Assembly (NCBI RefSeq): GCF_009618275.1
Contig: NZ_WIAD01000010.1
Location: forward strand, 1 to 64,000
DNA from: Roseimaritima sediminicola
GTDB lineage: Bacteria > Planctomycetota > Planctomycetia > Pirellulales > Pirellulaceae
Length of the DNA: 64,000 nucleotides
Reading direction: 5' to 3'
A program made the translations under genes and the position numbers. A model generated the notes under the pieces. It saw only the letters and a program-made list of their open reading frames with translations, did not search any database and had not been told where the DNA came from. Of this stretch, positions 47,439-61,287 are shown piece by piece. The first letter of the stretch is position 1, and the number at the start of each line of letters is the position of its first letter.

Positions 47439-48776
47439 ATGCAGAAAGCTACCGCGTTCATCCTAGGATCGGGCTACAATGCGCACGGACTTGCCCGAAG
47501 CTTGGCCCGCGTTGCCACCGACTGCCATGGGTTTGATGACGACTCGACGGGATTCCTGCATCACTCACGACTGTTCTGCGAACGGTATTCGGCGCCGCAC
47601 GACTGGAGCCTTAGCCAGAAACGAGAGGCAATTCTGGAACGCATTCGCGACATCGGTGGCCCGGTTGTGTTGTTTGCAACCGACGAACAGTGGCTGGTGG
47701 ACCTGCTATCAAACCTCGCGATGTACCAAGAAGCGGGCGCCGTCATCCCTTGCTTGAACCCTTCGGCCGCTTTGCTATGCGCCCACAAACAGCACTTCAA
47801 GTTATGGTGTCACTCCGAAGAGATCATCACGGCCCAGTCAGCTTTTTACAATGCTGCACAGCCGACCAACTGGAATACGTTTATCCAACAAGCCAGTGAA
47901 CTGCCCTACCCTGTAGTTGTGAAACCCAGCACCAAGGGTTCCGGACAGGAGGAGCTTGGGTTCACATTTTACAAAAAGTTTGATTCGGAAGAATCCTTCC
48001 GAGAGTGGGCAATTAGTCGTAATGTCGACGATCTTTCCTGCGACATTCTTGTCGAGGAATTCATCTCAGGCCCCGTCACGTCGCTAGTTTCCCTGCAGGG
48101 CTATGTTGACAGGGAAGGACAGGTACACGCCGGCCAGTATCGCAAGCTGTCGCAGACCCAAGGCATGCTGGGATGTGGTAACGTGGTACAAATCGAGCCC
48201 TGCGATAGAGAACTCTTCGATACCATTTCAGTTGTCTTGTCAAAACTGGCCTTTCACGGCTTCTTCGACGCGGAGTTCAAAATCTGTGAAAAGACCGGCA
48301 AACCGTACCTGATCGAGATCAATGCTCGACCGTGCATGCTTAATTACGCGGCAACTGTAATGGGCCTGAACCTCCCCGCGTTGGCAATGACGGACATGGT
48401 TCCATCCTACAATGCCTGGAGACCTTGCTCGAAACCACGAACGCGAAAATGGGTGTGGTGTCGGCATTTGCCGCATTTGATAGACAGTTGCACCGAGGCT
48501 TATAGTGCGAACAGCCTACTGTTTCCTCTGTCGGCGTTGAAAGCGTGGATAACACCGTTTCGGTTCCTTCCCACCTACGATCCCTTGGTTTCGCTGGCGG
48601 ACCCACTGCCGATCCTTCACCTATCGCGCAAGCTCATCCAACAGGCTGCATCACGCATCCGAGCAAAGTTCGCTACCCGTGCTCTCCGAACAGATGCGAA
48701 TGCGTCCACCAGCACCGAGCAGTCTGTCGCACCAAGTGCGACCAGACGGACTTCAAGGAAGCGGCGGGCAGCTTAG
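47439..48776 (+). CDS. ATP-grasp enzyme of the polysaccharide locus
   Basis: A 445-aa ATP-grasp protein (carbamoyl-phosphate synthase-like/D-Ala-D-Ala ligase fold). N-terminal FILGSGYNAHGLARSLA pre-ATP-grasp strand; ATP-binding YPVVVKPSTKGSGQEELGF; IEEF-like VEEFISGPVTSLVSL; metal-ligand region GFFDAEFKICEKTGKPYLIEINARP. It should form an amide or ester bond through an acyl phosphate. In glycan loci such enzymes can attach amino acids or related groups to sugars; that link is inference. The C-terminal 120 residues are not recognised and end in a Ser/Thr/Arg-rich tail. ATG at 47439. Confidence 0.8.
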   Translation: MQKATAFILGSGYNAHGLARSLARVATDCHGFDDDSTGFLHHSRLFCERYSAPHDWSLSQKREAILERIRDIGGPVVLFATDEQWLVDLLSNLAMYQEAGAVIPCLNPSAALLCAHKQHFKLWCHSEEIITAQSAFYNAAQPTNWNTFIQQASELPYPVVVKPSTKGSGQEELGFTFYKKFDSEESFREWAISRNVDDLSCDILVEEFISGPVTSLVSLQGYVDREGQVHAGQYRKLSQTQGMLGCGNVVQIEPCDRELFDTISVVLSKLAFHGFFDAEFKICEKTGKPYLIEINARPCMLNYAATVMGLNLPALAMTDMVPSYNAWRPCSKPRTRKWVWCRHLPHLIDSCTEAYSANSLLFPLSALKAWITPFRFLPTYDPLVSLADPLPILHLSRKLIQQAASRIRAKFATRALRTDANASTSTEQSVAPSATRRTSRKRRAA

Positions 48777-50016: not shown

Positions 50017-51414
50017 CTACGCGGCGGCGTGCAAAACGGCCCGGTACAACTGCCGTTCGGTTTCTTCAGAAAGGTTATTATTGTGCCACAGCAAGGTAAA
50101 CGTACCGTTTTGCTTTTTGCAGTTTTGGGCCAGGTCTTTGACCCGCTGAACCACACCATCATGCTTCAACCCTTCGTAGATGAGCAGCGAACACTCCATA
50201 GCAATCAATGGTTTTTCGACCAGATTGAGCGGCCTTCGCGACTGGACGTCGTAGGCATTAAAGGGATGACAGGTTCCGCAACGGAATCCTGCACGGTCAG
50301 CGAAACCGACGCTGCTATCGTAGTCTAGGCCGCAGTCATTCCAAGCATTCCATGTTGTTGGATTGCGCCACCGCAGATAATGCTGACGACCACCCCAAGA
50401 TGCCTGTTTGATATCCAGTTTTTCGCAGCTTCGCCGCAAAATTTGAAACTCGCTTGAAACGATCTCGGGATTTTGAAACGAGCTATAGCTGGGATGTAGC
50501 CCCACTTCATGACCGCGAGTTGCGACTTGCCGCACCACGTTCTGCACGGCTTTACTACCAAAGTTGTGCGTCCCGTCGATTCGACCCAACTTCCGATCGG
50601 TAATAAAGTAAAAGGCGCTGCGACAACCATGGGCTTCGCTGGCGTCCATGATGAAATTAAACGAGTTGTACGCGTCTTCATCGGCGTTGCCACGAAATGC
50701 CCGCGCCGCGCGAAGCGTTTCGCCGACCCACCGGAACGATCGGCGGCGGAGCCATGCCTCCTTGGCAAGGCGTCGCACCCCTTCCCTTGCAGATCGACCA
50801 TGATAGGCGAACGGGGAATCGACGTCGTGACTCAGCTGGATGCTGTAGGTGCCCTGTTTCCGGACCAAACCTGGCCAATGCCGCTTCAGCAGTTCCCACA
50901 GAATCTCCACATACTCATCGGCCAAGGGGCGATGCAGGAAGTCGCACCTTGACGCTATGGAATGCTCTGCGGGGAATCGACCGTGCTGATCCGTGGGGTG
51001 AACAACGACTTCTTCATAGCGACTGAGCAGGAAGAAGATGCTACCCAACAGATCGACTGAACAATTTCCCTCTGGGTCCAACAAGTTCACCCATCCTGCC
51101 TCCTCCGGTGGTCCGGCAAATAGGGCCGGTGTTTGGCTCTCGCACAGTACCGACTGGTCGAAACCTACGGGCAACCGAATATCGGCCAAAGGCAGTTCTG
51201 GAAGCGAATTTTCCGCCAGCCAGTCTTTTGACGCTTTGGCAAAAAAGTCGTCCCGCAAATGAAGCGTCGCCCCCTCCGCAGATAAGCATGTTCCCTGGTT
51301 AGACGGATCGTAGGCAACGGATACGTCGAGCCCCAACCGCTGCCTGAATACCCAATCAATGACATACTCGCGTTCGGCAAAGCAGTTCGCGGGACAAGAA
51401 ACATGCATTGTCAT
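50017..51414 (-). CDS. Polysaccharide deacetylase family protein
   Basis: A 465-aa protein whose C-terminal half is a NodB-type deacetylase: SIQLSHDVDSPFAYHGRSA (the first D motif), FYFITDRKLG, GHEVGLHPSYSSF (the HxxxH-like metal motif), the YDSSVGFADRAGFRCG with the catalytic-region Arg, and TLLWHNNNLS at the end. The N-terminal 180 residues form an extra domain often found in such proteins (VNLLDPEGNCSVDLLGSIFF). Likely removes N-acetyl groups from a glycan outside or at the membrane; no signal peptide is evident. ATG at 51414. Probably coexpressed with the downstream GT4. Confidence 0.85.
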   Translation of the reverse strand: MTMHVSCPANCFAEREYVIDWVFRQRLGLDVSVAYDPSNQGTCLSAEGATLHLRDDFFAKASKDWLAENSLPELPLADIRLPVGFDQSVLCESQTPALFAGPPEEAGWVNLLDPEGNCSVDLLGSIFFLLSRYEEVVVHPTDQHGRFPAEHSIASRCDFLHRPLADEYVEILWELLKRHWPGLVRKQGTYSIQLSHDVDSPFAYHGRSAREGVRRLAKEAWLRRRSFRWVGETLRAARAFRGNADEDAYNSFNFIMDASEAHGCRSAFYFITDRKLGRIDGTHNFGSKAVQNVVRQVATRGHEVGLHPSYSSFQNPEIVSSEFQILRRSCEKLDIKQASWGGRQHYLRWRNPTTWNAWNDCGLDYDSSVGFADRAGFRCGTCHPFNAYDVQSRRPLNLVEKPLIAMECSLLIYEGLKHDGVVQRVKDLAQNCKKQNGTFTLLWHNNNLSEETERQLYRAVLHAAA

Positions 51415-51616: not shown

Positions 51617-52315
51617 GTGGTCAAACGAAGTTTTGATATCGTTTTGTCGTTGACCGCGTTGTCGGTCGCTTGGTTACCGATGGCGATTATCGCCGCCACG
51701 ATCAAGCTGACGTCGCCAGGTCCGGTGCTGTACTGCGGTTCGCGTGTGGGACGGTTCGGAAAGGATTTTCGAATCTTCAAATTCCGCTCGATGGTCGTGG
51801 ATGCCGAAGCCCTGGGCGGAAGCTCGACCTCCAATGGCGATTGCCGGATCACACCGGTCGGAAGGTTTCTTCGCAAATACAAACTTGATGAACTTCCCCA
51901 ACTGTTCAACGTCCTGTTCGGGCAGATGAGTTTCGTGGGTCCTCGTCCCGAAGTCCGCGAATACGTGGACCTGTACTCCGCTGAAGAGCAAGCGATCTTG
52001 AACCTGCGCCCGGGTATCACGGACTGGGCATCGATCTGGAACAGTGACGAAGGTTCGATCCTGGCCGCATTTGCGGACCCCGACCAGGCCTACCTGGACG
52101 TCATTCGTCCCACCAAGTTGAAACTTCAGTTGCTGTACGGCCGCAACGCCGGCGTGTGGGAGGACGTGAAGGTCATTGTCTCCACGGCCCGTCGTCTGGT
52201 CGATGACAGCTGGCAACCGACGACGGTTCTTAAGCACTCGGAACCCTTGCCGGCGATCCAAGCGCGTCATCTCGAGCGTCTGGCCGCAGCCGAACAACCA
52301 AAGGCCGCGGCGTAA
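51617..52315 (+). CDS. Undecaprenyl-phosphate sugar phosphotransferase (priming transferase)
   Basis: A 232-aa bacterial sugar transferase (C-terminal catalytic domain of the WcaJ/PglC type). One N-terminal helix anchor (SFDIVLSLTALSVAWLPMAII), the substrate region TSPGPVLYCGSRVGRFGKDFRIFKFRSMV, RKYKLDELPQLFNVLFGQMSFVGPRPE (catalytic DE pair), and LRPGITDWASIW. It would transfer a sugar-1-phosphate to undecaprenyl phosphate, the first step of repeat-unit assembly. GTG start at 51617 preceded by AAGGA. It begins a tight operon: the next gene overlaps by one base (TAATG). Confidence 0.92.
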   Translation: MVKRSFDIVLSLTALSVAWLPMAIIAATIKLTSPGPVLYCGSRVGRFGKDFRIFKFRSMVVDAEALGGSSTSNGDCRITPVGRFLRKYKLDELPQLFNVLFGQMSFVGPRPEVREYVDLYSAEEQAILNLRPGITDWASIWNSDEGSILAAFADPDQAYLDVIRPTKLKLQLLYGRNAGVWEDVKVIVSTARRLVDDSWQPTTVLKHSEPLPAIQARHLERLAAAEQPKAAA

Positions 52316-53439
52316 TGATACGGATGCCCCCTCCCACAGCCCCCGAGCGATTGACCGTCGTCGTGCTGTGTCGCAACGAAGCTGATCATATCGAAGCGTG
52401 TTTGCAGTCCTTGGTTGACAGCGACTTTGACTTTGCGGATCGAGGCGAAATCGTTGTCGTCGATGGCAGGAGCGAGGATGGCACGCGAGCCAAAGTCGCG
52501 GCATTTGCGAATCGCTTTCCCTACGTCCGGCTGGTCGACAACCCGGCGAAAGTGACTCCCGCGGCATTCAACCTGGGAATCCAACACAGCCGTTCTGATG
52601 CGATTCTATTTGTGGGAGCGCATGCGACGTACGCCTCCGATTACGTTCGCCGCTGTTTCGAGGGTTTGCAGGCCAATCCCGAGGCGGATGTGATGGGTGG
52701 GCTGTTGGGCGTGAAAACCGACGGCACAGCCTGGAGCGAGGCGATTTCAGTCGCCACGACCCATCGCGTGGTCACCGGAAACGCCTCGCACCGGACCTCC
52801 GTGGCCGACTCGAAGATCCGGCGTGTGGATGCGGTGTTCGGTGGCTGCTTTCGGATCCGTGTCTTTGAAAAGCACGGAATGTTCCATCCCCGTTTAACGC
52901 GAGCTCAAGACCGCGAATACTTCCGCCGGCTCAAACGCGCAGACGCCACGGTGCTGCTGGACCCTACCATCCGCTGCAATTACAAACCTCGAGGCACCTT
53001 TGCCAGTTATGTCCAGTGGTCGTTTCGAGGTGCGTATTGGCTCGAGATTGCGCATCGATTCGTCGATACGCCCTTGCGCTCGCTGCGCAACTTTCTGCCG
53101 GCCGGCTTGTTAGCGAATGTCGTCTTATTGTTGCTGGTCAGCGCCGCGTCCGGCCTGGGCTCCGCCACCGCGGTCCTGACAATGCCACTGTTGCTGTACG
53201 CCCTGCTGATCTGCGGTTTTGCTGTTCAACAAGCCTGGCGAACCGGCAATCCGAATGTTGGCTTGATCCTTGCGGCGCTTGTCCCGGCGATCCATTTGAG
53301 CTACGGCGGGGGGACGATCGTCGGTTTTTGCCATCGCTTGATCCGTGGAGACGACGTGTCGGCGCCGCCCGCTTTGGTTCGCGCCAACGCCTCCACAGAA
53401 CCATCCTCTATACATTCCGCCCCCCAGCGGGTCGCGTAG
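52315..53439 (+). CDS. Glycosyltransferase family 2 protein with C-terminal membrane helices
   Basis: A 374-aa GT-A enzyme. LTVVVLCRNEADHIEACLQSL, EIVVVDGRSEDGTRA, NPAKVTPAAFNLGIQHS, AILFVGAHATYASDYVR, VFGGCFRIRVFEKHG, and RAQDREYFRRLKR make a standard nucleotide-sugar-dependent glycosyltransferase of the exopolysaccharide type. Helices at about residues 260-330 (AGLLANVVLLLLVSAASG, LTMPLLLYALLICGFAVQ) tie it to the membrane. The ATG overlaps the stop of the sugar transferase, so the two are translationally coupled. Donor unknown. Confidence 0.9.
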   Translation: MIRMPPPTAPERLTVVVLCRNEADHIEACLQSLVDSDFDFADRGEIVVVDGRSEDGTRAKVAAFANRFPYVRLVDNPAKVTPAAFNLGIQHSRSDAILFVGAHATYASDYVRRCFEGLQANPEADVMGGLLGVKTDGTAWSEAISVATTHRVVTGNASHRTSVADSKIRRVDAVFGGCFRIRVFEKHGMFHPRLTRAQDREYFRRLKRADATVLLDPTIRCNYKPRGTFASYVQWSFRGAYWLEIAHRFVDTPLRSLRNFLPAGLLANVVLLLLVSAASGLGSATAVLTMPLLLYALLICGFAVQQAWRTGNPNVGLILAALVPAIHLSYGGGTIVGFCHRLIRGDDVSAPPALVRANASTEPSSIHSAPQRVA

Positions 53440-53461
53440 TCTTTTCGAATTAACAACGCCC

Positions 53462-54580
53462 ATGTCTCTCACTACAAACACCGCTGCGATCAGTGACCTT
53501 GCGTTCTTCCGGGGGCGTTGTGCATTAACCGCTCTGCTACGGAGCCTGGGGATTGGCCGTGGTGATCAGGTGGCCACCCAGGCGTTTACTTGTGTGGCGG
53601 TTCCCGAAGCGATCAAGGTCAGCGGAGCGAGCCCCCTATTTGTCGACATTCAGTCCGCCGGCCTCAACCTCGACGTCGAGGACTTGCGGGCCAAATGGAA
53701 TCCGATGGTCCGCGCGATCATCGTGCAACACACCTTCGGTATCCCTGCCGACATGACTGCGATCATGGAGTTTGCTCAGTCGCAGGGCGTGCCGGTCATC
53801 GAGGATTGTTGTCACACGCTACACTCCACCTATCAAGGTCGCCCGGTCGGATCCTTTGGCTGTGGAGCGTTTTACTCGTTTGAATGGGGCAAACCGCTAG
53901 TTGCCGGAATCGGCGGAGCAGCGATCGTTAATTCGCCGGAACTACACGCGAGGATGCGTGCGTACCACGCGCGGCTTGTGCCGCCTCCGGTCGCCCAGCG
54001 GCTGAAGTTATCCGCCCAGTACCAAGCCTTTCGCATGCTGTATCGCCCGGCGTTCTACTGGGCACTGCGTAGCGCATTTCATCAACTTAGTCGGCTTGGG
54101 TTGGCGGCGGGGAACTACCAAGCCGACTACGACACGGACTTGGAATCGGCCGAGTACCGCTGGCAGATGGCGCCGCAGTTCCAACGCCGACTGGTTAAGA
54201 AACTGCGACACCTGGAGGAGCGAACCCGCCAGCAGCAAACGATCGCGACGGCCTATGCAAGCACCCTAGGCGGTCGCCAGGTCGCCCTCCCGCAGGCGCC
54301 TCTGGTGTCGGAGCCGGTCCTGGTTCGTTTTCCTCTGATGGTCGAACAAAAAGAACGGCTGCTCGCCAACGCGCAGCAAGAAAAGGTCGAAGTCGCCGGC
54401 TGGTACCAGCACGCGATTCACCCCCTGCCCGATGAACACGCCGCCTCGCTGTGCTACGAGCATCAAAGCTGTCCCCAAGCCGAACAGCGGGCAGAGGAAA
54501 TCATCTCGTTACCGATCAACGGCGGCGTCACCGAACGTTACCGTGAGCGGGTCGCCACGCTACTGGAGAAGTCTGCCTGA
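53462..54580 (+). CDS. DegT/DnrJ/EryC1/StrS family aminotransferase (atypical)
   Basis: A 372-aa PLP enzyme of the DegT family, which usually aminates keto-sugars linked to nucleotides. Seen: RGRCALTALLRSLGIGRGDQV, TCVAVPEAIKVSGASPLFVDI, VQHTFGIPADM, IEDCCHTLHSTYQG, and FYSFEWGKPLVAGIGGAAIV. The Lys in GKPLVAG takes the place of the usual SFHPxKN Lys, a recognised but less common version. The C-terminal half is less typical than in the two other DegT proteins of the locus, so the substrate may differ. ATG at 53462. It overlaps the following GNAT gene by one base (TGATG). Confidence 0.82.
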   Translation: MSLTTNTAAISDLAFFRGRCALTALLRSLGIGRGDQVATQAFTCVAVPEAIKVSGASPLFVDIQSAGLNLDVEDLRAKWNPMVRAIIVQHTFGIPADMTAIMEFAQSQGVPVIEDCCHTLHSTYQGRPVGSFGCGAFYSFEWGKPLVAGIGGAAIVNSPELHARMRAYHARLVPPPVAQRLKLSAQYQAFRMLYRPAFYWALRSAFHQLSRLGLAAGNYQADYDTDLESAEYRWQMAPQFQRRLVKKLRHLEERTRQQQTIATAYASTLGGRQVALPQAPLVSEPVLVRFPLMVEQKERLLANAQQEKVEVAGWYQHAIHPLPDEHAASLCYEHQSCPQAEQRAEEIISLPINGGVTERYRERVATLLEKSA

Positions 54581-55218
54581 TGTCCATTCGCTTCGCCCCG
54601 CTTGACCAACACGCCTCGCCCGCGATCTTCCGGGACATCGCCGAGATCCACCAAGCGGAGATCCCCAACGGCTTTCTGGCCTCGCTGGGCACTCCAACGC
54701 TGCAAAAGCTTTACAAGCAGATGGCGGGCTGCCCCGCGGCCTTCTGCGTCGCCGCCCTGGAGGCCGAGCGCTGCGTGGGCTTTATCTGGGGATCGAGCGA
54801 TACCTCGGCGGTTTACCGCTACTGCTTGCCCCGATGTGCGGGCTCACTGGCGCTGCCCTTGGCCGCCCGAGTCCTCCGCCCCACGATGCTCTTTCGCGTT
54901 TGGGAGACTTTACGCTATCCTTCGACGCAATCGGAGTCCCATGAGCTTCCGCGAGCGGAAATTCTGAATTTCTGCGTGCGGGGTGACCAACAAGGTCGCG
55001 GCGTGGGGCAGCGATTGTTTCAAGCCTTGTGCGAGGGTTTCCAGCGTCGCAACGTACCGAGTTTTCGGATCGTGACCGGCGAGGAACAGACCACCGCGCA
55101 CCGCTTTTACGAAGCAGCCGGTGCGGTGAAGCACTCGCAGATCCAAGTGCACAAAGGAGTTGCCTCCCGAGTGTATCTGTACCAACCTTCAACCCTGCAA
55201 ACGGTCTCAGCGGCCTAG
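54580..55218 (+). CDS. GNAT family N-acetyltransferase
   Basis: 212 aa. The acetyl-CoA loop is present as ILNFCVRGDQQGRGVGQRLFQAL (Q/RxxGxG), followed by RIVTGEEQTTAHRFYEAAGA, the usual last strand/helix of GNATs. The N-terminal half (DIAEIHQAEIPNGFLASLGT) fits sugar N-acyltransferases. It immediately follows an aminotransferase (TGATG overlap), suggesting acylation of the amino sugar that enzyme makes; that is inference from order. A possible membrane-associated segment around residues 85-115 is moderately hydrophobic. Confidence 0.82.
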   Translation: MSIRFAPLDQHASPAIFRDIAEIHQAEIPNGFLASLGTPTLQKLYKQMAGCPAAFCVAALEAERCVGFIWGSSDTSAVYRYCLPRCAGSLALPLAARVLRPTMLFRVWETLRYPSTQSESHELPRAEILNFCVRGDQQGRGVGQRLFQALCEGFQRRNVPSFRIVTGEEQTTAHRFYEAAGAVKHSQIQVHKGVASRVYLYQPSTLQTVSAA

Positions 55219-55238
55219 CGTCACGAAAAGGAATTCCG

Positions 55239-56369
55239 ATGGCACAAGCGACGATTCGTAAAGTCCCGTTTTTTGTTTACCCGGACATCTATCAGAGCGA
55301 CGCCGCCGAGATTGACGAAACCATCCGTGCGGTTTGCTCGCGCGGTGCCTTCATCATGCAGCGCGAGCTGGAGGAGTTCGAAAGCAATGTCGCCGAACTG
55401 GTCGGCGTTAAGCATGTGATCGGCATGGCCAACGCCACCGACGCACTGCACTTGGCCGTGCGAGCGGCTGGGATCGGCCCCGGCGACGAAGTCATCTTCT
55501 CGTCGCATACGATGGTGGCCACACCGGCCGCGGTTCACTATGCGGGCGCGACACCAATTCCGGTGGAATGTGGCGAAGACCACTTGATCGATGCAGATGC
55601 GGTCCGAGCGGCAATTACCGAGAACACCAAAGCGATCATGCCGACCCAGTTGAACGGTCGCACCGCGGCAATGGACCCGATCGTGGCACTTGCCGAGCAG
55701 CACGGGTTAATGATTCTCGAGGATGCGGCGCAAGCCCTGGGATCGCGATACAAAGGGCAAGCCGCCGGTTCCTTTGGGCTTGGGGGTTGCATCAGCTTCT
55801 ATCCGGCCAAGACCCTGGGCTGCCTGGGCGATGGCGGCTGTTGGCTGACCAATGACGACCACATGAACGACCAACTTCGCCTGCTTCGCGATCACGGTCG
55901 TGATTCGTCGGGGGATGTCTCCGTCTGGGGTTTAAATTCGCGTCTGGACAATGTTCAAGCGGCCATTTTGAACATCAAACTGAAACGCTATCCCGAAGCG
56001 ATTACGCGACGTCGGGAAATCGCCTCGCTCTACGACTCGATGCTTCGCGATGTCCCGGGCCTGAAACTCCCCCCGGCCCCGACCTCCGATGGTGAGCACT
56101 TCGACATCTTCCAAAACTACGAAATTGAAGCCGAAGATCGAACGGAGCTGCGAGCCTACCTGTCCGAACGTGGGATCGGTTCGCTGATCCCTTGGGGCGG
56201 AAAGGCAACCCACCAGTTCGATAAACTGGGCTTTCATCAGAGCCTACCTTTCACAGAACGTTTGTTCGAACGCGTACTGATGATCCCTCTGAACACCTCG
56301 ATGACCGACGAGGATGTGGTTCATGTTGCTCAAACGATCACGCAATTCTATCAGGACAAAGATTTCTGA
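55239..56369 (+). CDS. DegT/DnrJ/EryC1/StrS family aminotransferase
   Basis: A 376-aa canonical DegT aminotransferase. Landmarks: MANATDALHLAVRAAGIGPGD, EVIFSSHTMVATPAAVHYAG, IMPTQLNGRTAAMDPIVALA, LEDAAQALGSRYKGQAAG, and SFYPAKTLGCLGDGGCWLTN with the PLP Lys, then LNSRLDNVQAAILNIKL. It should transfer an amino group to a keto-sugar, in the way of PLP enzymes that act on UDP- or dTDP-keto sugars. ATG at 55239 follows AAAAGGA. It is 20 bp after the GNAT gene and leads into the split transketolase genes. Confidence 0.9.
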   Translation: MAQATIRKVPFFVYPDIYQSDAAEIDETIRAVCSRGAFIMQRELEEFESNVAELVGVKHVIGMANATDALHLAVRAAGIGPGDEVIFSSHTMVATPAAVHYAGATPIPVECGEDHLIDADAVRAAITENTKAIMPTQLNGRTAAMDPIVALAEQHGLMILEDAAQALGSRYKGQAAGSFGLGGCISFYPAKTLGCLGDGGCWLTNDDHMNDQLRLLRDHGRDSSGDVSVWGLNSRLDNVQAAILNIKLKRYPEAITRRREIASLYDSMLRDVPGLKLPPAPTSDGEHFDIFQNYEIEAEDRTELRAYLSERGIGSLIPWGGKATHQFDKLGFHQSLPFTERLFERVLMIPLNTSMTDEDVVHVAQTITQFYQDKDF

Positions 56370-56434
56370 GCCGTGTGACGCAGCGCCCTGCGACGCCAGG
56401 CCCTGAGCCCTCCAATACCAAGAAACGGATTTCT

Positions 56435-57238
56435 ATGGACACGCGAGAGTTAGCAAAACGTATCCGCATCCACGCGGTCAACATGACCAGCCGCGGAGGA
56501 AGCTCCCATATCGGCTCGGCCTTGTCGATGGCTGACATCCTGGCGGTGCTCTACGGGCAATGCCTGAATGTCGATCCGGCTCGTCCCCAATGGCCCGCAC
56601 GAGACCGGTTCATCCTCAGCAAGGGACATGGCGGCGCAGCGGTCTACGCGGCTTTGGCTGAGACCGGCTTCTTTTCTCCCGAGGTCCTCAAAACCCATTA
56701 TCAAGATGGCGGGAAACTCAGCGGCCATGTTTCGCACAAAGGCATTCCCGGAGTCGAGTTTTCGACCGGAAGCCTGGGGCACGGTCTGCCGGTCGGAGTC
56801 GGGATGGCCAAAGCCGCCCGACTGCGCGAGCAGGCACACCGGGTTGTGGTGTTGTTGAGCGACGGCGAATGCGACGAAGGCTCCAACTGGGAGGCAATTC
56901 TGTTCGCCGCGCACCACGGCTTGGACAACCTGATAGCGATTGTCGATTACAACAAGATCCAAAGTCTGGCACCGGTTGCCGAAACCTTGGGCCTGGAACC
57001 CTTTACCGACAAATGGCAGAGTTTCGGCTGGGACGTGAAGGAAGTCGACGGCCACGACCACGACCAGATGGCGACGATGCTGGACAATCCTGAGCCGGGA
57101 AAACCGCGTGTCGTCATCGCCCACACCACCAAGGGCAAAGGTGTCTCTTTCATGGAGAACTCGGTGCTGTGGCACTACCGCACGGCGCGAGGTCAAGAAT
57201 TCGAAGCGGCCATTTCTGAACTTGAACGATCTGCGTAA
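56435..57238 (+). CDS. Transketolase-like subunit, N-terminal (thiamine diphosphate-binding) half
   Basis: 267 aa, corresponding to the N-terminal third of transketolase. AVNMTSRGGSSHIGSALSMADI, DRFILSKGHGGAAVYAALAE, FSTGSLGHGLPVGVGMAKA, and the thiamine-diphosphate/metal motif LLSDGECDEGSNWEAILFA (GDGE..N type) and IVDYNKIQS are intact. Alone it lacks the pyrimidine-binding domain, which is in the next gene. Together the two would move a two-carbon (glycolaldehyde) unit between sugars. ATG at 56435, 65 bp after the aminotransferase. Its place among aminotransferase and glycosyltransferase genes points to unusual sugar synthesis rather than the pentose phosphate pathway. Confidence 0.9.
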   Translation: MDTRELAKRIRIHAVNMTSRGGSSHIGSALSMADILAVLYGQCLNVDPARPQWPARDRFILSKGHGGAAVYAALAETGFFSPEVLKTHYQDGGKLSGHVSHKGIPGVEFSTGSLGHGLPVGVGMAKAARLREQAHRVVVLLSDGECDEGSNWEAILFAAHHGLDNLIAIVDYNKIQSLAPVAETLGLEPFTDKWQSFGWDVKEVDGHDHDQMATMLDNPEPGKPRVVIAHTTKGKGVSFMENSVLWHYRTARGQEFEAAISELERSA

Positions 57239-57279
57239 GCCTTCCCTGCACGCCCCCTCCCTGCCCCCGAGTTGATCCC

Positions 57280-58218
57280 ATGCGAGATGAGTTTATTCGC
57301 ACCCTGACGACCATGGCCCAAGCCGACGATTCGATCGTTTTGATCACCGGCGACCTCGGATTCGGTGTTCTCACCGAATTCGCCGAACGCTTTCCCAAGC
57401 AATTCATCAATGCGGGCGTCGCGGAGCAGAACATGACGGGGATCGCTGCCGGCATGGCTCTGGAAGGCTACAAAGTCTACACCTATTCGATTGCGAATTT
57501 TGTGTTCATGCGTTGCCTGGAACAAATCCGCAACGACGCCGCCTACCATGACGCCAACGTCAACGTAGTCTCGGTCGGTGGCGGTTTCAGCTATGGTGCA
57601 CTGGGTATCTCCCACCATGCTACGGAGGATCTGGCAATCATGCGGTCGCAGCCCAATGTCAGCGTGTTCTGTCCTTCGGATCTCGATGAGACTCGGTGGG
57701 TTACCGAAGTCTCGGCAAAGACCAAGGGCGTTTCCTACCTGCGGCTGGACAAAAGCAAGGCGGATGACGCCGCACCGCTGGGTCCGTTGGCTGTCGGCCA
57801 AGCCCGTCCACGTTCGAGCGGACGCGATATCACCTTCGTGACCGCCGGCGGGATCTTGCAAGATGTCTGCATCGCTGCGGACCGATTACGGTCCGATGGC
57901 TACGACGTTGGCGTGATCTCGATGCCTACCATCAAACCCTTTGATCACTCCACGATTCAGAAACTTGCTGGAGAATGCCGGGCCGTCATCACCGTCGAAG
58001 AACACAACGTGGTCGGCGGCCTAGGATCTGCTGTCGCGGAGAGCTTGATGGCTTCGCCTCGACGCCCCGAAATATTTCGATCCATCGGCCTGCAAGACCA
58101 GTTCTCCTCGGTCGTTGGTAGCCAAGCCTACCTGCGAACCCACTACGGAATCGATGCCCAGGGCATCTACGAGAAGACGCGGCAAGCCGTTGTGAAGTCA
58201 CCTGCCATCGCGGCCTAG
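57280..58218 (+). CDS. Transketolase-like subunit, C-terminal half
   Basis: 312 aa, matching the pyrimidine-binding and C-terminal domains of transketolase/DXP-synthase-like enzymes. TGDLGFGVLTEFAERFPKQF, INAGVAEQNMTGIAAGMAL with the catalytic-cofactor Glu, VNVVSVGGGFSYGALGISHH, ATEDLAIMRSQPNVSVFCP, and the C-terminal domain IKPFDHSTIQKLAGECRAVI with TVEEHNVVGGLGSAVAE. It lies 41 bp after the N-terminal subunit gene and must pair with it. ATG at 57280. Last gene of the plus-strand operon starting at the priming sugar transferase. Confidence 0.9.
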   Translation: MRDEFIRTLTTMAQADDSIVLITGDLGFGVLTEFAERFPKQFINAGVAEQNMTGIAAGMALEGYKVYTYSIANFVFMRCLEQIRNDAAYHDANVNVVSVGGGFSYGALGISHHATEDLAIMRSQPNVSVFCPSDLDETRWVTEVSAKTKGVSYLRLDKSKADDAAPLGPLAVGQARPRSSGRDITFVTAGGILQDVCIAADRLRSDGYDVGVISMPTIKPFDHSTIQKLAGECRAVITVEEHNVVGGLGSAVAESLMASPRRPEIFRSIGLQDQFSSVVGSQAYLRTHYGIDAQGIYEKTRQAVVKSPAIAA

Positions 58219-58428: not shown

Positions 58429-59547
58429 CTAGCCCTGCGTGCCCACAGGCTCCAGGTTGGCGATCATCGTGTGGCACACGACCTCCTGTTGCTCGGGCGT
58501 CAGGTGCGGGCTCATCGGCAGACTCAAGCAGCGATCGGCCACCCGTTCACTGACCGGGAAATCTCCCGGCTGGTAGTTCAGCGACCGGTTGACCTCCTGC
58601 AGATGCAGAGGAATCGGATAGTAGACGGCCGTTCCCACGCCTTGCTCCCCGAGCACTTTCAGCAGTCGGTCGCGGCCATCGACCAAAACGGTGTACTGAT
58701 GGAACACCGACAAGGCGTCAGAATTGCCTGCCGTTGGCAGGCTGATCGGCTGGTCCGCCAAGCCTTCGGCGTACTTCGCAGCGGCGGCTTGTCGGCGTTG
58801 ATTCCACTGTTCCAGGTGGGACAGTTTGACTCGTAGCACGGCCGCTTGGATATCGTCCAGGCGGCTGTTGACACCGTTCTCCGTGTGGTGATATTTGACT
58901 TTGCCGCCATGACGGCGCAACATTTCGGCACGCTCGTACATCTCGTCGTCGTTGGTCAGGATCATTCCGCCATCGCCCATGCAGCCCAGATTCTTGCTGG
59001 GAAAAAAGCTGAGACAGCCTGCCAGTCCCATCGTACCGGTTTGCTTGCCCTTGTAACTGGCACCGACGGACTGGGCGCAATCCTCGATAACTTTTAAGTG
59101 GTGTTGCTCGGCGATCGCGAGGATTCGATCCATCTCACAGGGCAGACCGTACAGATGGACCGGGAGGATCAGCTTGGTTCTCGGCGTGATCGCCTCCTCA
59201 ATCTTGTCCGGGTCGATGTTGAAAGTCACAGGATCGATATCGACGAATACCGGCGTGGCGCCCACCAAGTTGATCGCTTCACAGGTTGCGATAAAGGTAA
59301 AGGGAGTCGTGATGACTTCGTCACCCGGCCCAATCCCCGCGGCTAATAGGCTGATGTGCAAGGCATCCGTACCATTGCCGACGCCGATTGCGTACTTGCA
59401 ATCCGCGTACGCCGCAAACTCCTGCTCGAAGCCCCGCACGTTGGGGCCCATGATGTATTGCCCCGCCGCGGCCGAGGACAGCAAGGCCGCTTCGAGCTCG
59501 GCCTGCAATTCGGTGTACTGCTGTTTCAGATCACACAAAGGAATCAT
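58429..59547 (-). CDS. wbpE: WbpE-like UDP-3-keto-sugar aminotransferase (DegT family)
   Basis: A 372-aa canonical DegT enzyme: MIPLCDLKQQYTELQAELE, GNGTDALHISLLAAGIGPGD, EVITTPFTFIATCEAINLVG, LPVHLYGLPCEMDRILAIAE, IEDCAQSVGASYKGKQTG, SFFPSKNLGCMGDGGMILTN (PLP Lys), VNSRLDDIQAAVLRVKL, YYPIPLHLQEV. Best fit is WbpE/WlbC, which aminates UDP-2-acetamido-3-keto-glucuronic acid, because the neighbouring genes on the same strand look like the dehydrogenase-type WbpB and the acetyltransferase WbpD of the same path. ATG at 59547. Last gene of the minus-strand operon. Confidence 0.88.
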   Translation of the reverse strand: MIPLCDLKQQYTELQAELEAALLSSAAAGQYIMGPNVRGFEQEFAAYADCKYAIGVGNGTDALHISLLAAGIGPGDEVITTPFTFIATCEAINLVGATPVFVDIDPVTFNIDPDKIEEAITPRTKLILPVHLYGLPCEMDRILAIAEQHHLKVIEDCAQSVGASYKGKQTGTMGLAGCLSFFPSKNLGCMGDGGMILTNDDEMYERAEMLRRHGGKVKYHHTENGVNSRLDDIQAAVLRVKLSHLEQWNQRRQAAAAKYAEGLADQPISLPTAGNSDALSVFHQYTVLVDGRDRLLKVLGEQGVGTAVYYPIPLHLQEVNRSLNYQPGDFPVSERVADRCLSLPMSPHLTPEQQEVVCHTMIANLEPVGTQG

Positions 59548-59602
59548 AGGAACGACCAAATGAGCTCGAGAAAATGGTGAAAACGATCCATCCTGACCGG
59601 GG

Positions 59603-60205
59603 TCAGCGGTTGCTGGGGACCAACGCCGTAGTCTCATCTACCGCGTAGGTTCGTCCACAATCCTGGCAGAGGTAGACGTCTGGCTGATTCGCCGACGCTT
59701 GTAAGCGAGTGCCACACTCGCATGCCCAGCCACGTTGACGAGCAGGATTGCCGTACACCAGAGCATAGGCGGGCACGTCCTTGGTGACTACCGCACCGGC
59801 ACCGATCAGCGCATGCGGACCGATGGTAACGCCGCAGACAATCGTGGCGTTTGCTCCGATGCTGGTGCCGCGCCCGACCCGTGTTTTGGCAAAGTCGGCT
59901 GCGGTGTTCCGGGGAAAAGCGCAGCGCGGCGTGATCACATTGGTGAACACCATCGAAGGGCCACAGAACACGTCGTCTTCCAAGGTGACGCCCTCGTAGA
60001 CCGACACGTTGTTCTGAATCTTCACATTGTTGCCGACCTCAACCCGCGGGCCGATGACGACGTTCTGGCCGATACGACAGTCGCGACCGACGCGGGTCCC
60101 GGTCAACAGATGGCAGAAGTGCCAGACCTGGGTTCCCAACCCAATCTCGACGCCGTCATCAACGTACGCCGATTCATGAATCCTGGGCTTGCTAGCACCG
60201 CTCAC
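59603..60205 (-). CDS. wbpD: WbpD-like N-acetyltransferase with left-handed beta-helix and zinc ribbon
   Basis: A 200-aa hexapeptide acyltransferase. Repeats such as [60 protein letters not shown] and [19 protein letters not shown] form a left-handed beta-helix. The family call WbpD/WlbB (UDP-2-acetamido-3-amino-uronate N-acetyltransferase) rests on [20 protein letters not shown] and on its neighbours. The C-terminus (WACECGTRL ... [10 protein letters not shown]) is a small zinc-ribbon-like extension. GTG start at 60205. It lies between the wbpB- and wbpE-like genes. Confidence 0.88.
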
Positions 60206-60309
60206 GACACAGTTCCCGCATTGAAGTGACCGCTTCTTCGCCGCCCTCCTACGCCATCGGATCCGGCGTAGCGAGCGGTTCGAAAACGCAGGGGATGTAA
60301 GAGCTCCGA

Positions 60310-61287
60310 CTAGGCAGCCACCCGAAATGGCAGCGGCTTGCCGTCAATAAAAGGATGCCGCACACCGGTTGGCGTGCATGCCGGCGTATTGCTGATCTGG
60401 TGCGCTAGGGCGATGGAGGGCTTGGCATCGCCGAGCCCGAACCCGCCTCCATCGAGGATGTCTCTGTAGACCCTGGTGTGCAGGTCCGTAAACCCTTTAG
60501 AGAACTCGATCTCTTGGCCATCGTAAGTCATCGACCGATAGGCATAACCCCCGTTGTCGACGACTTCCTTCGGCAGATCATTGGCATCGGTAGACAGGAA
60601 CCAACGGACGTTGGCGCGTTCCAAGCGCAGCAAGCCGCCCATGCGATTGGCATCGGCCAGGTGGACTTCGTTATCCGTCGCCTCACCGAACAACCACAGC
60701 ATCAAATCAAAGAAATGAATACCGATGTTCATCGCCACGCCACCCGACTTTTCTTTCTTTCCTTTCCAGGAAACTCCGTACCAAGCCCCGCGTCGAGTGA
60801 TGTAGGTCAGGCAGATATCCGCCTTCTCCTTGGTCTCGGTTTGCCGCAGCTTCTCCCTCAACTCGATCAACGAAGGCAGCAAACGCAGCTGCAGCACGTT
60901 GTAGACTCGGCCGGGGCTCTCTTGCTCGATTTCCTGCAAGGCGTCGATATTCCAAGGCGACAGCACCAATGGTTTCTCACAGATCGCGTCGGCGCCTAAG
61001 CGCAGAGCTAGCCGGACGTGAGCGTCGTGCAGGTAGTTTGGCGAGCATACGCTGATGTATTTGACGCGTTGCTCCTCGCCTTGCCGACGCAGCTTTTCCA
61101 AGTGTCGGTCGAAGCGTTCAAACTCGGTGAAGAACCGGGCCTCGGGGAAAAAGCTATCTAAACGGCCAACACAGTCATGCGGATCGAGTGCGGCAACCAG
61201 TTGGTTACCCGTATCATGAATGGCTTGCATGTGTCGCGGGGCGATATATCCAGCCGCACCAATTAAACCAAAGTTCGTTGAAGTCAT
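60310..61287 (-). CDS. wbpB: WbpB-like Gfo/Idh/MocA oxidoreductase
   Basis: 325 aa. NAD-binding [53 protein letters not shown] with the family EKP Lys, then the substrate domain [39 protein letters not shown] with the active-site His. This matches WbpB/WlbA, which oxidises C3 of UDP-GlcNAcA. With the adjacent wbpD- and wbpE-like genes it gives UDP-2,3-diacetamido-2,3-dideoxy-uronic acid. ATG at 61287 has an AAGGACG Shine-Dalgarno. wbpA (UDP-GlcNAc 6-dehydrogenase) is not in the window. Confidence 0.88.

What the first reader, a model, noticed from the sequence alone, without database searches (positions are those of the whole stretch)
53462..58218. Aminotransferase-GNAT-aminotransferase-split transketolase cassette
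Two DegT aminotransferases, an acyltransferase and the two halves of a transketolase-like enzyme follow one another in one tight operon with a priming transferase and a GT2. Split transketolases are known in antibiotic amino-sugar paths such as that to AHBA, where they transfer two carbons from an amino sugar. A two-carbon extension or shortening of an amino sugar for a surface polysaccharide would be a less described chemistry. This is my main candidate for a novel pathway, but the order of reactions is not shown by sequence.
Basis: inference. Interest (0 to 1): 0.58.

Follow-up and report, generated by a model that had tools for sequence, protein, structure and literature searches.

The report
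Split transketolase in sugar-branching gene cassette
A planctomycete polysaccharide operon carries a two-piece transketolase whose usual phosphate grip is largely gone, placed beside an aminotransferase; it probably adds a two-carbon arm to a sugar building block and puts nitrogen on it, a reaction proposed for a few antibiotics but, in the papers searched, not described for cell-surface sugars.

Summary
In detail: seven co-directional genes (51617-58218) encode a priming transferase, a GT2, two DegT aminotransferases, a GNAT and both halves of a transketolase (TK). The AHBA analogy is not supported: the rifamycin split TK acts late (PMC6002545). The genome also has two ordinary full-length TKs. 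The split TK belongs to a clade of 11 loci (support 1.00): 9 carry a DegT orthologue beside it, 2 an aldo-keto reductase instead, none both. Relatives sit with rfbF/G/H and no acetolactate-synthase-like (YerE-type) protein; one is fused to a nucleotide-sugar SDR. Of the 47 TKs in the larger clade none has the phosphate-binding His of human TK and at most one the acceptor Asp; catalytic residues are kept in the 11. Best reading: the TK adds a C2 ketol unit to a keto sugar nucleotide, DegT aminates (or the reductase reduces) the new ketone, and the sugar is primed for a polysaccharide. Acceptor, donor and order are inferred. Split-gene TKs have been proposed to branch sugars in streptomycete antibiotics, untested (PMC12247030); the same gene set is listed, with no role for the TK in the passages seen, in an Actinoplanes EPS cluster (PMC13390465). 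New variant of a known kind.

The parts
51617..52315 (+). Priming (undecaprenyl-phosphate) sugar-1-P transferase, short form, 232 aa
   Evidence: PF02397 183 bits; solved relatives Und-P galactose phosphotransferase 8t53 (90 bits), WbaP (85 bits) and N,N'-diacetylbacillosaminyl-1-P transferase (77 bits)
52315..53439 (+). GT2 glycosyltransferase, 374 aa
   Evidence: PF00535 72 bits
53462..54580 (+). DegT-A: short DegT-family aminotransferase lacking the N-terminal stretch, divergent C-terminal half, lysine of the PLP site kept in the alignment
   Evidence: PF01041 177 bits; alignment; 49% identical homologue in L037's genome; only the own genome of 294 phylum genomes matched at E<=1e-40 (at most 6 candidates scored per genome)
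54580..55218 (+). GNAT N-acyltransferase, probably acting on the amine made by DegT-A or DegT-B
   Evidence: PF00583/PF13673; homologue beside DegT-A in L037 (155 bits); a GNAT-priming transferase fusion is described in Actinoplanes wps-2 (PMC13390465)
55239..56369 (+). DegT-B: sugar aminotransferase next to the transketolase
   Evidence: PF01041 311 bits; nearest solved chains 7b0d, 2oga, 7n63, QdtB 3frk, WbpE 3nyu; orthologues (51-65% to the window) in 4 other genomes of 8 searched, none in the three reductase genomes
56435..57238 (+). Transketolase N-half (ThDP-binding)
   Evidence: PF00456 143 bits; best PDB 6yak split TK, 248 bits; catalytic His equivalents H25, H65, H98, H247 in 11 of 11 of the clade
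57280..58218 (+). [quoted passage not shown]
   Evidence: PF02779/PF02780; best PDB 6yaj; E49 kept, S345->G29, H416->G100, D424->L108, R474->K158, R318 kept as R2 (human numbering)
58429..59637 (-). WbpE-type UDP-sugar 3-aminotransferase of a 2,3-diacetamido-uronic acid set
   Evidence: solved relatives 7b0d 355 bits, 2oga 344, WbpE 331, QdtB 329 bits (query 58429-59547)
59603..60205 (-). WbpD/WlbB-type hexapeptide N-acetyltransferase
   Evidence: 3mqg LPS biosynthesis acetyltransferase, 199 bits; the names WbpD/WlbB are recalled
60310..61287 (-). WbpB-type UDP-sugar 3-dehydrogenase (GFO/IDH/MocA fold)
   Evidence: WbpB 3o9z/3oa2, 338/327 bits

Best explanation
The two TK halves form one ThDP-dependent ketol transferase that no longer handles pentose-phosphate sugars. 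It adds a two-carbon hydroxyacetyl unit to the ring ketone of a keto sugar nucleotide (most likely a UDP-4-keto-6-deoxy-amino sugar), giving a C-branched octose with a ketone in the arm. DegT-B then transaminates that ketone; in sister loci an aldo-keto reductase takes the same place and would reduce it. DegT-A and GNAT add and acylate an amino group, and the priming transferase loads the finished residue on the lipid carrier for a Wzx/Wzy-type polysaccharide that also contains a 2,3-diacetamido-uronic acid from the neighbouring WbpBDE set. Shown by sequence: gene identity and order, clade, residue changes, exchange of DegT-B for the reductase, neighbouring pathways. Inferred: acceptor, donor, position of the branch, order of steps, product.
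For: 1) TK tree (83 loci; 90 loci, alignment, supports): the window sits in a clade of 11 (1.00) inside a larger clade (0.96). In loci of at least 10 kb, 23 of 33 of the larger clade (14 of 24 outside the clade of 11) but 2 of 22 of the rest have NDP-sugar, DegT or priming-transferase genes within 6 kb. 2) Residues: phosphate-binding H416 0 of 47 against 28 of 43; R474 4 of 47 against 35 of 43; S345 6 of 47 against 23 of 43; D424 0 of 47 against 27 of 43; R318 kept in 46 of 47; catalytic His and Glu kept in 11 of 11. 3) Relatives lie with rfbF and rfbG in L041, L042, L070, L073, L115, L116, L142, L143 and with rfbH in L041, L042, L070, L073, L116, L140; no IlvB-like frame in those nine loci, in eight other loci of the clade of 11, in L069, L113 or the window. 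YerE puts a C2 branch on CDP-3,6-dideoxy-4-keto-D-glucose (PMC12247030, passages). 4) In L115 a nucleotide-sugar SDR (PF01370, residues 19-247) and TK-N (PF00456, residues 383-612) are one protein, encoded beside rfbF and rfbG. 5) Within 6 kb, DegT-B in 9 and the reductase in 2 of the 11 loci, never both; genome searches agree: DegT-B orthologues in G000, G320, G331, G278, G009 (5 of 8), reductase orthologues in G311, G390, G064 (3 of 9 searched), no overlap. An aldo-keto reductase reduces the branch ketone in paulomycin (PMC4753412, abstract and passages). 6) L113 has a DegT-B relative (43%) behind a pyruvate-dehydrogenase-E1-like pair instead of the TK, the other ThDP type reported to branch sugars. 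7) Split TK then aminotransferase is a reported sequence of steps in azinomycin (PMC9570651, passages). 8) WbpM-type 4,6-dehydratases lie next to the priming transferase in L068 and L069 and about 18 and 22 kb from the TK in G390 and G278.
Against: No dehydratase or other obvious maker of a 4-keto sugar was found in the window; WbpM-type genes lie in the examined region of 4 of 7 genomes, and G320 has a shorter PseB-like one. Residue loss is not peculiar to sugar-nucleotide loci: 13 of 43 TKs of the other clade also lack both H416 and D424, seven of them beside FGGY-type sugar kinases. The larger clade is not purely glycan: L137, L138, L139 and L141, which group close to the window's clade, sit beside SDR, aldehyde dehydrogenase, enoyl-CoA hydratase, thiolase or transporter genes, and 10 of 33 long loci show none of the markers. 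Donor and acceptor normally share the phosphate pocket, so its loss leaves the donor unknown. DegT-B resembles C3 sugar aminotransferases, which could act on the ring and not on the side chain. The azinomycin/vazabitide-type TK held (L125) falls in the other clade. The IlvB screen had only IlvB itself as positive control, and YerE's own sequence was not held.
Confidence: 0.4

Rival explanations
1. DegT-B aminates a ring ketone of a nucleotide sugar in the ordinary way (QdtB/WbpE-like), and the TK acts on another part of the same residue or on another residue; the two are neighbours only because they serve one polysaccharide.
For: DegT-B is closest to C3 sugar aminotransferases; plasmid homologues at about 40% lie under features that include FdtA/QdtA cupins or Gfo/Idh/MocA genes.
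Against: DegT-B and the reductase exclude each other beside the TK in 11 of 11 loci; DegT-B is adjacent to the TK or one gene away in 9 of 9; a DegT-B relative pairs with a second type of ThDP enzyme in L113.
Confidence: 0.25
2. The TK extends an aldehyde by two carbons (linear chain extension, as AziC5/C6 in azinomycin) and DegT-B aminates the new hydroxyketone, giving an amino-polyol substituent or a higher-carbon amino sugar.
For: Same enzyme pair and order of chemistry in azinomycin (PMC9570651, passages); a Streptomyces plasmid has DegT-TKN-TKC-GNAT with LysW/argB/argC genes; aldehydes are the usual TK acceptors.
Against: That Streptomyces TK lies in the other clade and keeps the His; no aldehyde-making gene was recognised as conserved in the cassette; rfb-associated relatives point to a ketone acceptor.
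Confidence: 0.15
3. The acceptor is the 3-keto intermediate of the neighbouring WbpB, giving a C3-branched 2-amino-uronic acid, much as a keto sugar is the proposed TK acceptor in miharamycin.
For: A WbpB-WbpD-WbpE trio lies in the examined region of 5 of 7 genomes and WbpE-type genes in the other 2; WbpB is the closest solved relative of 60310-61287.
Against: The complete trio already gives the 3-keto sugar its usual fate (amination and acetylation; recalled); the trio is up to about 20 kb from the TK in relatives, and WbpB was not found in the examined regions of G009 and G064.
Confidence: 0.1
4. An AHBA/kanosamine-like path: the TK removes two carbons from an amino sugar phosphate.
For: DegT and TK genes side by side.
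Against: Phosphate-binding residues replaced; rifamycin's split TK acts elsewhere; no aminoshikimate-type families among the 30 window proteins scanned.
Confidence: 0.05
5. A housekeeping transketolase of the pentose-phosphate pathway that happens to lie in a polysaccharide locus.
For: TK domains and catalytic residues intact.
Against: Two ordinary TKs elsewhere in the genome score above NCBIfam cut-offs (810 bits, cut-off 682; 850 bits, cut-off 488); altered site; conserved polysaccharide context.
Confidence: 0.05

Closest known systems
YerE and YerE-like enzymes (yersiniose A and related LPS sugars)
   Same: ThDP enzyme that branches a CDP-3,6-dideoxy-4-keto sugar for a surface polysaccharide (PMC12247030, passages); relatives of the window TK occupy rfbF-G-(H) loci
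   Different: YerE belongs to the decarboxylase/acetolactate-synthase side and uses pyruvate; here a split TK with no IlvB-like protein in the loci screened
Split-gene transketolases proposed for miharamycin/amipurimycin and 13 further streptomycete sequences
   Different: Antibiotics of Streptomyces, untested in vitro; here polysaccharide loci of planctomycetes and other phyla, with an aminotransferase or reductase partner
Azinomycin AziC5/C6 and vazabitide-type TK plus aminotransferase
   Same: Split TK followed by amination of the new hydroxyketone (PMC9570651, passages)
   Different: Acceptor is an N-acetyl-glutamate semialdehyde; the one such TK held (L125, so classed by its neighbours) lies in the other clade
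alpha-KADH2 branching enzymes and the paulomycin reductase Pau7
   Same: C2 branch, then reduction of the branch ketone by an aldo-keto reductase
   Different: E1-type ThDP enzyme with pyruvate; an E1-type pair was seen here in L113 and L046, not in the window
Actinoplanes missouriensis wps-2 EPS cluster (AMIS_56690-56780)
   Same: Methyltransferase, TK-N, TK-C, DegT, GT2, DegT, GNAT fused to a priming transferase, Wzx, Wzy (PMC13390465, passages): all seven protein kinds of the window operon
Rifamycin Rif15
   Same: Two-subunit TK that attacks a carbonyl of a non-sugar acceptor
   Different: Forms an ester on rifamycin S; not AHBA, not a polysaccharide (PMC6002545, passages)

Membership tests
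Transketolase superfamily (split form) | PF00456, PF02779 and PF02780 domains on two adjacent genes; catalytic His and Glu and ThDP motif | tested here: met
Housekeeping (pentose-phosphate) transketolase | Phosphate-binding residues R318, S345, H416, R474 and acceptor residue D424 (human numbering; roles recalled) | tested here: not met
   Only R318 kept in the window; S345, H416, D424, R474 replaced
Housekeeping (pentose-phosphate) transketolase | NCBIfam transketolase equivalog cut-off | tested here: inconclusive
   Each half stays below cut-off (264 and 176 bits; cut-off 488), but half proteins cannot be judged against a full-length cut-off
YerE-type sugar-branching enzyme | Acetolactate-synthase-like protein | tested here: not met
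   No IlvB-like frame at E<=1 in the window or 19 loci (positive control IlvB only)
Split-gene TK that branches a keto sugar (miharamycin/amipurimycin type) | Split TK encoded next to keto-sugar-nucleotide genes | tested here: inconclusive
   Met for relatives with rfbF/G/H and for the SDR-TK-N fusion; in the window only the WbpB type makes a keto sugar
Split-gene TK that branches a keto sugar (miharamycin/amipurimycin type) | Hydroxyacetyl transfer to a ring ketone shown in vitro | not testable with these tools
   Not shown for the reference enzymes either
Split-gene TK that branches a keto sugar (miharamycin/amipurimycin type) | Same sequence clade as the miharamycin/amipurimycin TKs | not tested
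   Their sequences were not held
Azinomycin/vazabitide TK-aminotransferase module | Split TK adjacent to an aminotransferase | tested here: met
   DegT-B, TK-N, TK-C adjacent
Azinomycin/vazabitide TK-aminotransferase module | Glutamate kinase/reductase (argB/argC type) or carrier protein genes; same TK clade | tested here: not met
   No ArgB-like gene within 6 kb of the window TK; L125 TK in the other clade
AHBA pathway | AHBA synthase and aminoshikimate genes | tested here: not met
   DegT-B scores 109 bits against AHBA synthase and 246 against its best chain; DegT-A 83 against 103; no aminoshikimate-type families among 30 window proteins; the rest of the genome was not searched for them
UDP-2,3-diacetamido-uronic acid set (WbpB/WbpD/WbpE) | 3-dehydrogenase, acetyltransferase and 3-aminotransferase side by side | tested here: met
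   window 58429-61287

The most novel reading that the evidence does not exclude
Transketolase-type sugar branching is a third ThDP route (beside YerE-like and E1-like enzymes) for making C-branched sugars of bacterial surface polysaccharides, spread over planctomycetes and other phyla; in the window's clade the two-carbon arm is transaminated, giving aminated C-branched octoses, with aminotransferase and reductase as exchangeable finishing enzymes.
Probability: 0.33. Interest if true: 0.75.

Novelty: new variant of a known kind. Interest (0 to 1): 0.58.

Why it matters
If right, it gives a testable enzyme for an open question named in the 2025 review: whether any split-gene transketolase really accepts a keto sugar. 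It moves the idea from a few streptomycete antibiotics to surface polysaccharides of several phyla, supplies tens of candidate enzyme pairs with a shared residue signature, and predicts aminated branched sugars in planctomycete glycans.

Tried and rejected
Considered and rejected: AHBA/kanosamine path; housekeeping TK; a YerE hidden in the loci (none found). That DegT-A and GNAT are a fixed part of the module was rejected: in the phylum sample only the own genome matched DegT-A (1 of 294), and of three further genomes only L037's did. Searches that led nowhere: DegT-A in 394 actinomycete genomes (0 matches at 1e-30, no positive control). Ten paper searches ran; several held more papers than were listed (for example one search listed 10 of 5,802 and one search listed 8 of 371), so absence there is weak. 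An IQ-TREE run failed (thread setting) and its repeat timed out (the tree printed has no support values); supports come from FastTree. Structure prediction and fold searches were not used.

Limits: the genome search scores only part of its first-look candidates in the large sweeps, so genome counts are lower bounds. Of 110 TK-C rows 27 were dropped before the tree: 24 repeats of longer loci, two own-genome full-length ThDP enzymes (L003, L004) and one partial locus (L063). The 43 sequences of the other clade include about 14 very similar Lachnospiraceae-type ones, so such counts are not independent; only 4 of its 22 long loci carry the sugar-catabolism markers that I scored. The count came before seven actinobacterial loci were added (3 with rfb-type genes, 4 without), with which it would be 26 of 40. 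L048 aligned with a D at position 108 but with a gap. L038, L039 and L043 are close relatives of one another.

Full report
Observation. The window is part of contig 11 of a 6.2 Mb genome; nearest relatives of its TK are planctomycetes such as Adhaeretor mobilis. Seven genes on the + strand, 51617-58218, encode a short priming transferase, a GT2, DegT-A, a GNAT, DegT-B, TK-N and TK-C, with gaps of -1 to 65 bases. No promoter-like site and no excess of terminator-like sites was found between them. Around them lie a Wzx, a weakly matched Wzy (below the Pfam cut-off), glycosyltransferases, an O-antigen-ligase-like protein and a WbpE-WbpD-WbpB set on the other strand.

The transketolase. The halves match the solved split TK of Carboxydothermus best (6yak 248 bits, 6yaj 172 bits). 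Alignment with human TK shows the catalytic histidines and glutamate kept, but S345, H416, D424 and R474 replaced by G29, G100, L108 and K158, while R318 stays (the roles of these residues are recalled, not computed here). Over 90 sequences the window's larger clade has H416 in 0 of 47 and D424 in 0 of 47 (L048 is ambiguous: D in the alignment, gap), against 28 and 27 of 43 in the rest; S345 6 of 47 against 23 of 43; R474 4 of 47 against 35 of 43. This loss alone is not diagnostic: 13 of the 43 others also lack both H416 and D424, seven of them beside FGGY-type sugar kinases. The genome carries two ordinary full-length TKs above curated cut-offs, so the split enzyme is not needed for the pentose-phosphate pathway.

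Clade and context. FastTree on joined halves puts the window in a clade of 11 loci (support 1.00), with L069 and L106 (0.97), then in a group that adds the actinobacterial loci L137-L143 and L116 and L070 (0.996), inside a larger clade of 47 (0.96) opposed to the remaining 43 (first tree). In loci of at least 10 kb, NDP-sugar, DegT or priming-transferase genes lie within 6 kb in 23 of 33 of the larger clade and 2 of 22 of the rest (Fisher p = 8e-6, sequences not independent; outside the clade of 11 it is 14 of 24). The TK lies with rfbF and rfbG in L041, L042, L070, L073, L115, L116, L142 and L143, and with rfbH in L041, L042, L070, L073, L116 and L140; together these enzymes make the YerE substrate (recalled; three of the nine loci show no rfbH). 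No IlvB-like frame was found in these nine loci, in eight other loci of the clade of 11 (L038 and L039 were not screened), in L069, L113 or the window. In L115, Paenibacillus cellulosilyticus, a nucleotide-sugar SDR (PF01370) and TK-N (PF00456) form one 635-residue protein beside rfbF and rfbG, a direct link of the TK to sugar-nucleotide chemistry. Against exclusivity: L137, L138, L139 and L141 have SDR, aldehyde dehydrogenase, enoyl-CoA hydratase, thiolase or transporter neighbours, and 10 of the 33 long loci show none of the markers.

The aminotransferase. In the clade of 11, nine loci have DegT-B next to the TK or one gene away (window, L037, L038, L039, L040, L043, L068, L103, L104) and two have an aldo-keto reductase there instead (L036, L105); L069 also has the reductase. 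Genome searches agree: DegT-B orthologues (51-65%) in G320, G331, G278 and G009 besides the window, none in G311, G390 and G064, where the best hits are at 33-42%; reductase orthologues in G311 (the query), G390 (65%) and G064 (51%), with no match above 37% in the other six of nine genomes. A TylF-type methyltransferase of one kind goes with DegT-B (six loci) and of another kind with the reductase (two loci). In L113 a DegT-B relative (43%) sits behind an E1-alpha/E1-beta pair in place of the TK. These exchanges are best explained if the ThDP enzyme makes a ketone that is then aminated or reduced. Published parallels: the aldo-keto reductase Pau7 reduces the C4-acetyl branch in paulomycin (PMC4753412, abstract and passages); azinomycin's AziC5/C6 TK product is aminated (PMC9570651, passages).

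DegT-A, GNAT and priming. DegT-A and GNAT are rare: in the phylum sample only the own genome matched DegT-A (1 of 294), and L037 has both. In Actinoplanes missouriensis wps-2 the listed domains are a methyltransferase, TK-N, TK-C, DegT, GT2, a second DegT whose domain begins at residue 10, and a GNAT fused to a priming transferase, with Wzx and Wzy (PMC13390465, passages). That is the window's set, and the fusion suggests that the GNAT acylates the sugar that the priming transferase loads. Deleting the cluster gave no visible change under the conditions used and, in the passages seen, the TK is given no role.

Acceptor. Two candidates remain. WbpM-type 4,6-dehydratases lie next to the priming transferase in G009 and G064 and about 18 and 22 kb from the TK in G390 and G278; G320 has a shorter PseB-like one about 6 kb from its priming transferase; none was seen in the window or the G311 region. 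This fits a UDP-4-keto-6-deoxy sugar. WbpB-WbpD-WbpE lies in the same region in 5 of 7 genomes examined over 38-64 kb (G000, G320, G311, G390, G278), WbpD and WbpE without a detected WbpB in G009, and WbpE- and WbpD-like frames without WbpB in G064; this may only mean that the polysaccharide also holds a diacetamido-uronic acid. G331 was not counted because its contig is short. The rfb-type relatives favour a 4-keto acceptor.

Comparison with what is known. A 2025 review (PMC12247030; passages and its section on transketolases) says that TKs were proposed to transfer hydroxyacetyl to a keto sugar in miharamycin and amipurimycin, that 13 further split-gene candidates all come from streptomycetes, and that none had been characterised in vitro. 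LPS branching is assigned there to YerE-like enzymes. My paper searches brought up no description of a TK doing this in a polysaccharide pathway; I saw listings, and passages of five papers, and most papers of subscription journals are not in that library. I rate it a new variant of a known kind.

Verdict. Observation confirmed; interpretation partly supported. That the TK is a specialised ketol transferase for a polysaccharide sugar is likely (about 0.75); that it branches a ring ketone about 0.5; that DegT-B aminates the arm about 0.45; the whole path as stated 0.4.

Noticed in passing
L125 (Streptomyces sp. CL7 plasmid pSALBX2), 4631-16897: DegT, TK-N, TK-C and GNAT beside LysW, argB/argC-type, RimK-type and NRPS genes: by its neighbours a vazabitide/azinomycin-type module on a plasmid.
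   Followed up: partly
L137, L138, L139, L141 (actinobacterial genomes): Split TKs without the phosphate-binding His and acceptor Asp, close to the window's clade, beside SDR, aldehyde dehydrogenase, enoyl-CoA hydratase and thiolase genes; substrate unknown.
   Followed up: partly
L115, 10097-12004 (Paenibacillus cellulosilyticus plasmid): Natural fusion of a nucleotide-sugar SDR with the TK N-half in an rfbF-rfbG cluster; the record calls it only an SDR.
   Followed up: partly
L113, 6195-11245 (G277): Priming transferase, E1-alpha, E1-beta, DegT-B relative and a class I/II aminotransferase in a row: possible E1-type branching cassette in a planctomycete polysaccharide locus.
   Followed up: partly
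L046, 9001-17317: Two successive split TK pairs followed by an E1-type pair in a Candidatus Atribacteria contig.
   Followed up: no
L117 (Solidesulfovibrio carbinolicus plasmid pDCAR1): Two split TK pairs from different clades in one polysaccharide cluster with pseB/pseC.
   Followed up: no
window 47439-48776 and 50017-51414: An ATP-grasp protein and a DUF7033 protein inside the polysaccharide locus; DUF7033 homologues recur in the G064 (L069) and G320 regions.
   Followed up: no
loci of the clade of 11: Two different TylF-type methyltransferases track with the finishing enzyme: one kind in six DegT-B loci, another in the two reductase loci; window and L037 have a GNAT and no TylF hit.
   Followed up: partly
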